The notes under the pieces: model-generated | The model's input: only the letters and a program-made list of their open reading frames with translations | Told to the model about the DNA's origin: nothing | Databases searched by the model: none | Assembly: GCA_017470045.1 (NCBI GenBank) | Contig: JAFUFG010000058.1 | Coordinates: 1-6,774, forward strand | Source: Bacilli bacterium | GTDB taxonomy: Bacteria; Bacillota_I; Bacilli_A; RF39; UBA660 | Direction of reading: 5' to 3' | Length of the DNA: 6,774 bases | Position numbers and translations under genes: made by a program | Shown: positions 1,830 to 6,774 of the stretch, piece by piece | Layout of the letters: the number at the start of each line of letters is the position of its first letter | Position numbering within the stretch: the stretch's first letter is position 1

Positions 1830-1856
1830 AAAAAAGATTGAAATCAATCTTTTTTT
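1830..1856 (-). terminator. Terminator of the F1-like ATPase block (overlaps last stop codon)
   Basis: A perfect 11-bp inverted repeat (1830-1840 with 1845-1855) encloses a 4-nt loop. The stem has a GATTG/CAATC core flanked by six A and six T, so it has poly-T on the 3' side in either direction. The loop and first stem base hold the TGA stop codon (1844-1846) of the upstream gene. No plus-strand gene is seen, so its likely job is to end the leftward ATPase transcript before thiI. Confidence 0.85.
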
Positions 1857-2557
1857 GGTAAATTCATAAGTTTTGAAACATCCTTTATAAATAACTTAGA
1901 AGTATCATTATAATACATTAAATCCAAACTAGCATTTACTTTATATTTACCATTCGTAATGATAACTTGATCACGAACTTCTTCTAATACATCAAATTTA
2001 TCATTCGTATAGTCATAAACAGAAACGGTATTATTTAAAGTATCTACAATAACATAAGATAATGGATCTAATTCATATTTCTTATCTCCAAAAGTAACAG
2101 TAGACTTTTCTGTTAAGAAGTAGATATCTCCTCCATCATAGATAATTGCATCAAATAATCTCTTATCTAAACTACCATCTTTAATAGAAAATTCAGTATA
2201 ATCTTCATATATTTCAGAATAATAATTAATTTTATATTGAATTCCTCTTAATGGATAGATAACAGCCATATTCTTAGGAAATAAAACTCTCTTTTCCCCT
2301 TTGTAATAAATAGGAGTTGTATCAAGTTCAATTACTTGATCCTTAAAACTTAACTTCGTAATCTCATCTTTATTTTTATTAATATGAATTGTTCCCTTAT
2401 ATTCTACTTTAATACCAGTAAGATATTGGTATAAAGAACGATTCTTAATTTCTACAACATCAATATCTCTCTGAAAAGAAAATAATATTGCTAGAATAAT
2501 GATAATAATCAATAATGCTAACCATTTTAAATTACTTCTACTAAATACTTTCTTCAT
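1844..2557 (-). CDS. Unknown membrane-anchored protein, last gene of the F1-like block
   Basis: I do not recognise this 237-residue protein. It has a short basic N-terminus (MKKVFSRSNLK), one strong hydrophobic helix (about 12-29, LALLIIIIILAILFSF) and a polar domain of about 205 residues. By the positive-inside rule that domain should face outside. It is rich in short alternating β-type segments with many Tyr and Asp, and has no Cys and no catalytic motif that I can name. There is no lipobox, so it is a bitopic membrane protein rather than a lipoprotein. The start at 2557 is set by AGGAGGG (2564-2570) 6 nt upstream; an in-frame ATG at 2590 lies before that site. The gene overlaps the end of the preceding membrane-protein gene by 17 nt, which implies coupled translation and a linked function. 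The TGA stop falls in the terminator hairpin. It may be an extracytoplasmic partner of the neighbouring membrane protein; this is inference. Confidence 0.85.
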   Translation of the reverse strand: MKKVFSRSNLKWLALLIIIIILAILFSFQRDIDVVEIKNRSLYQYLTGIKVEYKGTIHINKNKDEITKLSFKDQVIELDTTPIYYKGEKRVLFPKNMAVIYPLRGIQYKINYYSEIYEDYTEFSIKDGSLDKRLFDAIIYDGGDIYFLTEKSTVTFGDKKYELDPLSYVIVDTLNNTVSVYDYTNDKFDVLEEVRDQVIITNGKYKVNASLDLMYYNDTSKLFIKDVSKLMNLPKKD

Positions 2558-3092
2558 TTCTTTCCCTCCTGATATATCGAGTCTTAACAATTAAACTATT
2601 GATATTTCTTAACAAGAAGAATGTTGAATAGATAATAATAAAGACTTTTAATAATATATCACCAACATAAACATACCATTCATAACGTACTTCAATCAAA
2701 TAGTTTGTTAAAATTCTACTGGCAAGTAAGGCAAAATATAATGCAAAACTATTGAATGATTCAAAAACTAAATTCTTAATACTCTTTGAAAATATTCCAA
2801 ATAACAACGTAAAGGCAATTAGAATAATAATATGAAAATCACCAATAGATAACTTATCAAATAAGGTCCATATAACAAATACAAATCGTACCAACAAGAC
2901 ATCTAAGGCAAGTATTGTAAAATCGTCTAACTCCATTAATAATCCAAATAAGTGAACTCTTGCACCCTCAATCGTATGATTTTTACTTTTTAAATCTAAT
3001 ACAATATAAGAAATAAGTTCTAAAATAAGAAGAAATACAACAAAGAATATCGTAAACTTTATTAATACATTCATTAAAACATTTAAAGTCAT
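2541..3092 (-). CDS. Unknown multi-pass membrane protein in the F1-like block
   Basis: I do not recognise this 183-residue protein. It is strongly hydrophobic, with about five predicted membrane helices near residues 9-33, 55-77, 84-102, 108-131 and 140-163, and a basic C-terminus (KTRYIRRERN, 170-179) that should be cytoplasmic. A few charged residues lie in or near the helices (E25, E54, D56, D57, D64, R69, D85, E134, R136). It does not show the recognisable helices of Fo a (the conserved Arg region) or c (a hairpin with one buried Asp/Glu), and it is too long for AtpI. The start at 3092 follows AAGGGA at about 8-nt spacing, 3 nt after the ε-like stop codon. The stop is TAG, and the end overlaps the next gene. 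Its place directly after γ-β-ε makes it a candidate membrane partner of this ATPase; that is inference from position. Confidence 0.85.
   Translation of the reverse strand: MTLNVLMNVLIKFTIFFVVFLLILELISYIVLDLKSKNHTIEGARVHLFGLLMELDDFTILALDVLLVRFVFVIWTLFDKLSIGDFHIIILIAFTLLFGIFSKSIKNLVFESFNSFALYFALLASRILTNYLIEVRYEWYVYVGDILLKVFIIIYSTFFLLRNINSLIVKTRYIRRERNEESI
2564..2570 (-). promoter_or_regulatory. Ribosome-binding site deciding the start of the last block gene
   Basis: AGGAGGG on the minus strand, 6 nt before the ATG at 2557, lies within the coding sequence's upstream neighbourhood just past the end of the preceding gene. It rules out the earlier in-frame ATG at 2590, whose product would be 11 residues longer. 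Confidence 0.8.
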
Positions 3093-3095
3093 AGA

Positions 3096-4695
<1,600 letters not shown>

Positions 4696-4716
4696 CTAAC
4701 TACCCCTTTTCTAATA

Positions 4717-5487
4717 TTACTTTCTAAAGTTTTCAATAATCTTTTGAAAATCTTTTTGTTTTTTGATCTTACGGTTAGCCTTAAATTTTTCTTCTTCCAT
4801 TTCATCAATTTTCTTTAAAGATTCATTCGTTAATTGCTGACGAACAACATTTTCAGCAGCATAACTATTCATTTCACAAATCTTTAGTTCATAGCACAAA
4901 TAAAGTGCTATCAAATTATTAAGCATTGGTGCTAAATCAGTCTCCATTGCAAAATCTTCATCAAATGTTTCATCACCAGAAGACGAATCATAATCCACTG
5001 GAAATAATTTTTTCTTTGTAAACTCCAATGAATTAACATTATGATAATGATTATAAACGACGTTAATCTCACGATATTTACGTTCTACAATACCATCATA
5101 AATAACATCTTCCACTTTTTTAAAACTATCAAAAAATTCATCTTTTGTAATACGAAGAACAACTTTATCATCATCTTCTCTAGTATGAATTTTTTTACCA
5201 ATTAGTATTTTATAATCTTCATCCTTACGAACTTCTTTATTAATCGCAAAGTTGAAGTCACCACAGAACCCCAAGTCATTACCAATATATACATTTAAGA
5301 CAGGCGCATTACTTCTTGGAGTAATGGCCTTCTTGTCTAAAATGATATTTCGATTGTATAAAATCTTACGAATAATTTTGAATAATTCAGCTTCAGTATC
5401 AAAATACATTGCAGCTTTTCTTCTAGCTTTATCAACACGAAGAAGAGAGTGAAAGTTCATAACTTTTACTACGTTACGTACAGCCAT
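4717..5487 (-). CDS. atpG: Divergent F1 γ-like central-stalk subunit
   Basis: γ is the rotating shaft of F1. The 256-residue protein is recognised by IGNDLGFCGDFNFAIN (68-83), matching the family's SDRGLCGGLN region in the central Rossmann-like domain. The C-terminal helix also fits: SYAAENVVRQQLTNESLKKI (208-227) corresponds to the SENAARMxAMxNATxNA segment, and NRKIKKQKDFQKIIENF (238-254) to the NKxRQxxITxEIxEIV end. The N-terminal helix (1-43, rich in Lys/Arg) is present but lacks the usual ITKAMxMV sequence. The chain is 30 or so residues shorter than ordinary γ and has an acidic insert (170-183) and a charged C-terminus. The start at 5487 is 1 nt after the stop codon of the upstream acidic protein, with a weak ribosome-binding site (GAAGTGA), so translation is probably coupled. 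Position before β is as in standard F1 operons. Confidence 0.85.
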   Translation of the reverse strand: MAVRNVVKVMNFHSLLRVDKARRKAAMYFDTEAELFKIIRKILYNRNIILDKKAITPRSNAPVLNVYIGNDLGFCGDFNFAINKEVRKDEDYKILIGKKIHTREDDDKVVLRITKDEFFDSFKKVEDVIYDGIVERKYREINVVYNHYHNVNSLEFTKKKLFPVDYDSSSGDETFDEDFAMETDLAPMLNNLIALYLCYELKICEMNSYAAENVVRQQLTNESLKKIDEMEEEKFKANRKIKKQKDFQKIIENFRK

Positions 5488-5488
5488 A

Positions 5489-6774
5489 TTAGATCACTTC
5501 TTCCTCTGACTTCTTCTTATTCGTATTCTTTTTCTTCTTTCCTTTTGAACTCTTTTTCTTAGTTGTTTTATCGAATGGTTTAAATTCAACAGATTCTTCT
5601 TTAGGTTCTTCTGTAGGATTTTCTTCTTTTACCTCAACAGGTTCTTCTACTTTATCTTCTACAGTTTCTTCTGGAAAATCAAATTCGAATTCTTCAGAAT
5701 AAACATCTTCTTCCTCTTCTGGAATTTCTAGATTAGTAGAAGTTTCATCTGTCTGTTCTTCAACAGGAGTCTCCTCTATAGGAGTAGATTCTTCTGGAAA
5801 GTCGAATTCAAACTCCTCTGAATATACTTCTTCTTCCTCAGGAATCTTTAAATCATTTGGTAAATCAGCATTTTCTACTTCATTTGCTTCTACTTCTGGG
5901 TTTACTTCTTCTTCGTAAACCTCTTCTGTATCAACATTTTCCGTAAGTCCCGATTTCTCTTCTTCATTTATTTGTTCTCCAGTTACATTTTCAGTAACTT
6001 CATCATCTGTATCTTTAACGAATTCACCATCTGGTGCTTCTCTTACAATCTTTCCATCTAAAACAGGATCTACTTCTACTACCTCTTCAGGTACTTCTCC
6101 ATCAAGATTTAAATTGAAAGCAAAAGTACGAGTATCATCTAGTGGATCTTTCTCAACAACCTCTTCATTAGTCTCTTCTACAGGAACTTCTGAAGTAGTT
6201 TCTTCTACTACATCCGTAACAGGAATTTCAATTCCATCATCCGTAGCTTCTTCAATACGATCTACTTTCACATCTTCATTTAATTCAAATGCAACCTCTC
6301 CAAGATCATAGTCAACACTAACAGTTTCAATATCATCTTCCTTAGGTTTGTCATCATCAAATCCAGGAACATCAATAGATACATTTTGATTAATATCAGC
6401 TTGATCTAAAATATCATTCATCTTTGGAATTGTAGGAGTATCAATAGCTTGAATCATTTCTTCTACTTCTTCCTCAGTTGCATCATCAGGAATTACCATA
6501 CTAATTACAGGTTCTTCAAAATCTGTTTCTGGAACTGGAACAGGAATTTCCGTAACAGGAATAGATAAATTGTCTTCTGTAACAATTCCATCAGGATTTG
6601 GTATATTCATATCCATAATTGGCAATTCAAATCCCTCAGTTGGTGTTCCCATTTCAATTGGAGTATTAACTTCCATTACAGAAGAATCTGCTACCATAGC
6701 ATCATCTGTTACCGTTGGAACATTCATATGAACTTCCATTGGTACCTCTGTGGAAATCTCCATAGGAACCTCTG
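5489..6774 (-). CDS. Acidic, low-complexity protein, C-terminal part (runs off right edge)
   Basis: The reading frame is open through the right edge of the window (the codons before the Met at 6763 read Glu-Val-Pro), so this is the C-terminal portion, at least 428 residues, of a longer protein. It is dominated by Glu and Asp with Val, Pro and Thr. No Cys, Trp or membrane segment is seen, and it is very probably disordered. Numbering from the Met at 6763, residues 1-130 are rich in VP/IP/TP steps, 140-395 are strongly acidic and contain two near-identical copies of IPEEEE-VYSEEFEFDFPEE (307-325 and 347-366), and 396-418 is a Lys-rich tail (TKKKSSKGKKKKNTNKKK) ending in SEEEVI. It stops 1 nt before the γ-like gene, the place where α normally sits. 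It could be the tail of an α-like subunit, a stator- or linker-like protein, or a surface or scaffold protein. I cannot name it. Confidence 0.8.
   Translation of the reverse strand, partial: EVPMEISTEVPMEVHMNVPTVTDDAMVADSSVMEVNTPIEMGTPTEGFELPIMDMNIPNPDGIVTEDNLSIPVTEIPVPVPETDFEEPVISMVIPDDATEEEVEEMIQAIDTPTIPKMNDILDQADINQNVSIDVPGFDDDKPKEDDIETVSVDYDLGEVAFELNEDVKVDRIEEATDDGIEIPVTDVVEETTSEVPVEETNEEVVEKDPLDDTRTFAFNLNLDGEVPEEVVEVDPVLDGKIVREAPDGEFVKDTDDEVTENVTGEQINEEEKSGLTENVDTEEVYEEEVNPEVEANEVENADLPNDLKIPEEEEVYSEEFEFDFPEESTPIEETPVEEQTDETSTNLEIPEEEEDVYSEEFEFDFPEETVEDKVEEPVEVKEENPTEEPKEESVEFKPFDKTTKKKSSKGKKKKNTNKKKSEEEVI
5666..5725 (-). repeat. Peptide repeat copy 2 (IPEEEEDVYSEEFEFDFPEE)
   Basis: This is the second copy of an acidic/aromatic motif in the protein upstream of γ. 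It differs from copy 1 by one inserted Asp. At DNA level the copies differ at several third codon positions, so the peptide rather than the DNA appears conserved. Confidence 0.8.
5789..5845 (-). repeat. Peptide repeat copy 1 (IPEEEEVYSEEFEFDFPEE)
   Basis: This is the first copy of the 19-residue motif; the copies start 40 residues apart. The spacer between them (STPIEETPVEEQTDETSTNLE) is not repeated. Confidence 0.8.

What the first reader, a model, noticed from the sequence alone, without database searches (positions are those of the whole stretch)
1844..6774. Possible F1-like/X0 rotary ATPase cluster in a spore-forming Firmicute
A catalytically intact β is joined to a divergent γ, a one-domain ε, an acidic repetitive protein before γ and two unknown membrane proteins after ε, all in one tightly coupled unit. 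Standard operons run atpB-E-F-H-A-G-D-C and normally end at ε. Mycoplasma type 2 and type 3 F1-like ATPases are known for keeping F1-type subunits while pairing them with unrelated membrane proteins (X0); some are tied to gliding or to immunoglobulin cleavage. A similar machine in an organism with spores and the standard code would widen that family. The link to X0 types is inference.
Basis: partly seen in the sequence, partly recalled or inferred. Interest (0 to 1): 0.85.

Follow-up and report, generated by a model that had tools for sequence, protein, structure and literature searches.

The report
Ion-free rotary ATPase with surface arms
These genes look like part of an ATP synthase that has lost its ion-carrying residue and is instead linked to very large cell-surface proteins, so it probably burns ATP to move something outside the cell.

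Summary
In detail: one tight minus-strand unit encodes a divergent, catalytically intact F1 β, a γ, a short ε-like protein and two unknown membrane proteins (M1, M2). The acidic protein before γ is the C-terminal tail of an α cut by the window edge. In relatives the unit belongs to a conserved operon: giant protein 2 – Fn3-like protein – c – b/δ fusion – α – γ – β – ε – M1 – M2 – giant protein 1. The order c-b-δ-α-γ-β-ε is that of an ordinary atp operon. At its ion-binding position c carries a carboxylate in 0 of 67 loci, against 27 of 27 ordinary c scored. No ordinary subunit a is found in 80 loci. M1's predicted helix plan resembles subunit a (inconclusive); M1 is fused to M2 in ten loci. 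β forms its own clade, apart from ordinary AtpD and both mycoplasma types, whose X0 proteins show no similarity. In 17 small host genomes no other F- or V-type rotary ATPase was detected. Best reading: an ATP-driven, ion-uncoupled rotary motor acting on giant adhesin-like surface proteins; like the mycoplasma X0 machines in idea, not a member of Types 2 or 3.

The parts
5489..6772 (-). C-terminal acidic, repetitive tail of the α subunit (the gene runs off the window; the catalytic core lies upstream, as seen in relative L011)
   Evidence: 49% identity to residues 622-919 of the 983-aa L011 α; 10 of 64 complete α are longer than 540 aa
4717..5487 (-). γ subunit, 256 aa, divergent
   Evidence: PF00231 E 1.8e-23 (over cut-off); TIGR01146 55 bits (under cut-off)
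3322..4692 (-). β subunit, 456 aa, catalytically intact, own clade
   Evidence: PF00006 E 2.4e-66; catalytic Glu motif 78 of 78; tree
3096..3353 (-). ε-like subunit, 85 aa, length of the N-terminal domain only
   Evidence: weak: NCBIfam ε E 0.013; profile against ordinary ε Prob 0.4 although colinear; assigned mainly by position and length
2541..3092 (-). M1, 183-aa membrane protein; predicted helix plan resembles subunit a but without a conserved arginine; proposed stator/bearing
   Evidence: model pLDDT 85.8; structural alignment, inconclusive; conservation; fused to M2 in ten loci
1844..2590 (-). M2, one membrane helix plus a β-rich domain of about 200 aa, placed outside the cell by inference; similar domains at the N-termini of the Fn3-like and giant proteins
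   Evidence: model pLDDT 85.8; profile comparisons; found in 10 of 10 genomes searched

Best explanation
The window holds the 3' part of an operon for an ion-uncoupled F-type rotary ATPase that does mechanical work at the cell surface. SHOWN by sequence: intact catalytic motifs in α and β; γ; a c subunit without the ion-binding carboxylate; an N-terminally anchored protein resembling b plus δ; the gene order of an atp operon; no recognisable subunit a; conserved linkage to M1, M2, an Fn3-like protein and giant proteins; a natural M1-M2 fusion. INFERRED: ATP hydrolysis turns γ-ε-c. The bδ stalk and M1 (which has taken the place of subunit a) hold α3β3 still and guide the ring without passing ions. 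M2 sits outside on M1, and the Fn3-like and giant proteins, which carry a similar anchor domain, assemble with it into an extracytoplasmic collar with long Fn3/GLUG arms. Rotation or stepping of the ring then moves or reconfigures these arms, for gliding, sweeping or attachment to host, food particle or neighbour. The α tail in the window's group may tether or cluster the motors.
For: Operon in the 49 of 80 loci with enough flank: c 48, bδ 49, α 49, γ 49, β 49 (by selection), ε 49, M1 48, M2 45, Fn3-protein N-domain 47, ordinary a 0. c resembles ordinary c (PF00137 over cut-off; profile Prob 97.6), yet the carboxylate position is T/A/S/V/M in 67 of 67, against E in 27 of 27 ordinary c scored (of 28). 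bδ: C-part against δ Prob 85, N-part against b Prob 71; the same parts against other families 2.5 or less. β catalytic Glu 78 of 78, α Arg finger 65 of 65, α Walker A 64 of 65. M1-M2 fusion in ten loci (Prob 98 and 100). Anchor domain: Fn–giant2 97, giant1–giant2 89, M2–giant2 85, M2–Fn 71, M2–giant1 68. GLUG over cut-off in giant 1, Fn3 below cut-off in giant 2; Fn3 structures hit by the Fn3-like protein's profile. 17 of 26 genomes have no subunit a and no F-type α/β other than this family's, and none of the 17 has V-type subunit I.
Confidence: 0.6

Rival explanations
1. The rotary ATPase energises export or assembly of the giant surface proteins (a secretion or chaperone machine) rather than moving them once they are on the surface.
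For: Giants are encoded in the same operon in many loci and share an anchor domain with M2; in the window's nearest genome there are three tandem giant-1 genes away from the motor, as one might expect of clients.
Against: The two giants read in full begin with an N-terminal hydrophobic segment compatible with ordinary export (by eye); the M1-M2 fusion and shared anchor domain look structural rather than transient.
Confidence: 0.13
2. The machine resets or opens a surface binding/processing complex, as proposed for the mycoplasma Type 3 ATPase with MIB-MIP (PMC12994834), with the giants as binders rather than as motile legs.
For: Same general layout (F1 plus surface proteins); the discussion of PMC12994834 proposes ATP-driven reset of a surface complex; tandem giant paralogues could be variable binders.
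Against: No protease or immunoglobulin-binding family was matched in the one giant 1 and one giant 2 scanned.
Confidence: 0.15
3. It is still ion-coupled: M1 plus the altered c-ring carry an ion through a different site.
For: c and b-like membrane parts are retained and M1 may be a-like; Thr/Ser at the site in 41 of 67 is polar.
Against: No acidic residue in helix 2 of c in 66 of 67; no well-filled M1 column has one basic residue in more than 39 of 59; Ala/Val/Met at the site in 26 of 67.
Confidence: 0.08
4. A decayed duplicate atp operon without function.
For: Divergent sequences, no recognisable subunit a.
Against: Catalytic Glu kept in 78 of 78 β and Arg finger in 65 of 65 α; the gene set is conserved across records titled Bacilli, Clostridia and Lachnospiraceae and holds the only full-length F-type α/β in 17 genomes.
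Confidence: 0.02

Closest known systems
Mycoplasma Type 3 F1-like X0 ATPase (MSC_0618/0619 cluster, MIB-MIP partner; PMC3369863, PMC12994834)
   Same: F1-type α, β, γ, ε freed from ordinary Fo and tied to membrane/surface proteins; proposed to pass force outward
   Different: Different order (P1-P2-γ-ε-P5-α-β, read in five of six stretches); a 12-TM P1, no b/δ or other F0 homologue (PMC3369863, section read); β of the window scores below its curated cut-off and lies in a different clade; P1/P2/P5 unlike M1/bδ/M2
Mycoplasma mobile Type 2 G1-ATPase gliding motor (PMC11864180, passages; PMC12994834 discussion)
   Same: ATP-driven F1-like motor thought to drive a surface crank and leg; its GliD is proposed there to derive from a b-δ fusion
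   Different: β has a long N-terminal extension (698 and 679 aa in L159/L160); its seven-gene cluster as listed in PMC12994834 has no c subunit; separate clade
Ordinary F1Fo ATP synthase
   Same: Gene order c-b-δ-α-γ-β-ε; detectable c, b, δ, α, γ, β similarity
   Different: No ion-binding carboxylate in c, no recognisable a, b fused to δ, one-domain ε-like protein, extra surface proteins
N-ATPase (alternate F1F0, TIGR03305)
   Same: A second, divergent F-type ATPase in some bacteria
   Different: β 396 bits against a cut-off of 752; N-ATPase c has residues for Na+ transport (PMC4154653, passage); its locus order differs (a passage there gives IB-IE-I-R-0A-0C-0B-IA-IG, seen from mid-sentence and taken to mean the N-ATPase)

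Membership tests
Ordinary F1Fo ATP synthase (Type 1) | Catalytic β and α with Walker A, catalytic Glu, Arg finger | tested here: met
   Catalytic Glu 78 of 78 β (Walker A by selection), Arg finger 65 of 65 α, α Walker A 64 of 65
Ordinary F1Fo ATP synthase (Type 1) | Ion-binding carboxylate in helix 2 of c | tested here: not met
   0 of 67 loci; 27 of 27 scored ordinary c have Glu
Ordinary F1Fo ATP synthase (Type 1) | Subunit a (PF00119) in the operon | tested here: not met
   Ordinary-a profile 0 of 80 loci; PF00119 not found in 17 of 26 genomes. M1 might be a remote remnant
Ordinary F1Fo ATP synthase (Type 1) | Peripheral stalk b and δ | tested here: met
   As one fused protein, by profile-profile comparison: δ Prob 85, b Prob 71. 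The ordinary b and δ models give no hit at E 1e-3 in 49 loci, so the match is remote
Mycoplasma Type 3 F1-like X0 | β over the curated NF045934 cut-off / in the Type 3 clade | tested here: not met
   404 bits against 570; 28 family rows form their own clade
Mycoplasma Type 3 F1-like X0 | 12-TM P1, P2 and P5 in a seven-gene cluster | tested here: not met
   Different gene set; Prob under 5 for the eight pairs of P1/P2/P5 with M1, c, bδ, M2 or surface domains that were tried
Mycoplasma Type 2 (G1) | β with a long N-terminal extension, over the NF045858 cut-off | tested here: not met
   Window β 456 aa, 358 bits against 850
N-ATPase | β over the TIGR03305 cut-off | tested here: not met
   396 bits against 752
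Subunit a (for M1) | Fold with long paired C-terminal helices wrapping the c-ring | tested here: inconclusive
Subunit a (for M1) | Essential conserved arginine | tested here: not met
   Among well-filled columns no Arg exceeds 31 of 59

The most novel reading that the evidence does not exclude
A new class of rotary motor: a complete F-type ATPase (F1, stalk, c-ring and an a-like stator) in which evolution removed ion transport from the membrane sector and attached giant extracellular arms, an ion-free c-ring motor. It may be an intermediate on the way to the mycoplasma gliding and X0 motors, and in 17 small host genomes it is the only F- or V-type rotary ATPase detected.
Probability: 0.5. Interest if true: 0.93.

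Novelty: new variant of a known kind. Interest (0 to 1): 0.87.

Why it matters
F-type ATPases are known as ion-coupled machines. [quoted passage not shown] A family in Bacillota, including records not marked as MAGs (Kineothrix alysoides KNHs209, Lachnospiraceae bacterium G11), that keeps the c-ring and stalk makes the question of how an ATP synthase becomes a mechanical motor testable in bacteria that are not pathogens so far as I know (recalled). It also warns that the name 'F0F1 ATP synthase subunit beta', which some sources give these proteins, need not mean an ATP synthase.

Full report
WHAT IS IN THE WINDOW. All genes of interest are on the minus strand: α tail (5489-6772, open), γ, β, an ε-like protein, M1 and M2, followed by ThiI, an α/β-type SASP and an acetate kinase fragment. 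The six genes overlap or are 1 to 24 bases apart. β and γ are clear homologues (PF00006 E 2.4e-66; PF00231 E 1.8e-23); ε is weak (NCBIfam E 0.013).

THE OPERON. No genome is held for the window. One scan of genome contigs with β confirmed 195 relatives, of which the best 80 loci were kept, so the sample leans towards close relatives. L011 (β 99% identical) has the same downstream genes as the window and shows what lies upstream: an Fn3-like protein, an 81-aa c, a 249-aa membrane-anchored protein, and a 983-aa α whose acidic tail matches the window's acidic ORF. Gene maps give a common order: giant 2 – Fn3-like – c – bδ – α – γ – β – ε – M1 – M2 – giant 1, with variants. Profile searches on six-frame ORFs, in the 49 of 80 loci with more than 6.5 kb upstream and 3.5 kb downstream, find c in 48, bδ, α, γ, β (by selection) and ε in 49 each, M1 in 48, M2 in 45, the Fn3-protein N-domain in 47, the giant 1 N-domain in 37, the giant 2 N-domain in 21 (many giant 2 genes run off the fetched stretch), and ordinary a, b and δ in none (the profiles were built from these loci). 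In ordinary operons read from host genomes (for example L106-L109 and L113) the order is a-c-b-δ-α-γ-β-ε; the family keeps the order from c to ε and lacks a at the front.

THE OUTSIDE. M2 has one membrane helix and a β-rich domain (pLDDT 85.8). In ten loci with two M2-type genes the first is an M1-M2 fusion (group profile: M1 part Prob 98, E 2.7e-13; M2 part Prob 100), good evidence that M1 and M2 belong together. The N-terminal domains of the Fn3-like protein, giant 1 and giant 2 resemble M2 and each other in roughly colinear alignments (Prob 97, 89, 85, 71, 68 and 25 for the six pairs; only six giant 2 N-termini were available). Giant 1 (2908 aa in L104) carries GLUG motifs over cut-off; giant 2 (1741 aa in L103) has Fn3 below cut-off. 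Giant 1 was found in 7 of 10 genomes searched, not in G014, G017 and G023. In the window's nearest genome it is on another contig as a row of three (3265, 3259 and at least 566 aa). M2 was found in 10 of 10 genomes, in G023 on another contig just behind an ORF that looks like the Fn3-like protein. A search of about 5.8 billion proteins with the M2 profile listed 95 relatives, none with a Pfam domain.

GENOME CONTEXT. Of 26 host genomes, 9 have PF00119: by record title five Lachnospiraceae, one Lachnoclostridium, Kineothrix, one Peptococcaceae and one Bifidobacterium. Eight of these show a full ordinary AtpD, the ninth (G024) a partial match; 17 genomes (0.8-1.6 Mb) have no PF00119. In those 17 the TIGR01039 search, which also rings in all four V/A-type archaeal controls, lists only this family's α and β, plus one weak extra in G022 (E 5e-10), and V-type subunit I is not found in 17 of 17. 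Most are MAGs, so single absences may be gaps. Frequency: M1 profile solid in 4 of 296 genomes of the class of G008, G008 included (two more matches are marginal); family β at 65% identity or more in 3 of 250 genomes of the family of G018, G018 included.

PHYLOGENY. In a β tree of 73 rows the 28 family rows form one clade (support 100), the 14 Type 3 rows another, the 2 Type 2 rows another. In a thinned tree of 65 rows family and Types 2/3 fall together against ordinary β with support 90, but long branches meet and AU tests do not settle the inner order. A shared origin with the mycoplasma motors is possible, not shown.

MECHANISM. With intact catalytic motifs and no ion site, ATP hydrolysis would turn the ring without pumping. 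The retained stalk implies that α3β3 is held still. The M1-M2 fusion places M2's domain beside the presumed stator, and the similar anchor domains of the long proteins suggest one mixed collar. All of this paragraph is inference.

KNOWN SYSTEMS. Papers seen: PMC12994834 (abstract, section 2.1, part 1 of the discussion), PMC3369863 (abstract, one results section), PMC11864180, PMC13104615, PMC4154653 and PMC12306168 (passages); other papers only as search listings. Nothing that I saw describes this family.

Noticed in passing
L020 (Bifidobacterium colobi strain LC6 contig): The operon sits in an actinobacterial record with GC 0.603, close to that genome's ordinary atp operon (0.587), which suggests horizontal transfer rather than contamination.
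   Followed up: partly
G008 contig C9 (L202, L203): Three tandem giant-1 genes (3265, 3259 and at least 566 aa) away from the motor genes, which look like a paralogous surface-protein array.
   Followed up: partly
L059, L065, L066 (one genome by record title); L034, L068 (one genome): Several diverged copies of the operon in one genome, as if different motors carried different surface arms.
   Followed up: no
L050, L063, L076, L078-L080: A variant order with γ moved behind M1 and M2 moved in front of c or away from the cluster.
   Followed up: partly
second M2-type protein in the ten fusion loci, e.g. L035, L038: A single-pass protein of about 450-550 aa whose C-terminal part matches M2 (Prob 99.9) and whose N-terminal part is of unknown kind.
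   Followed up: partly
L011 12157-14620: Two adjacent ORFs that both look like acetate kinases by eye, the second divergent, downstream of the SASP gene.
   Followed up: no
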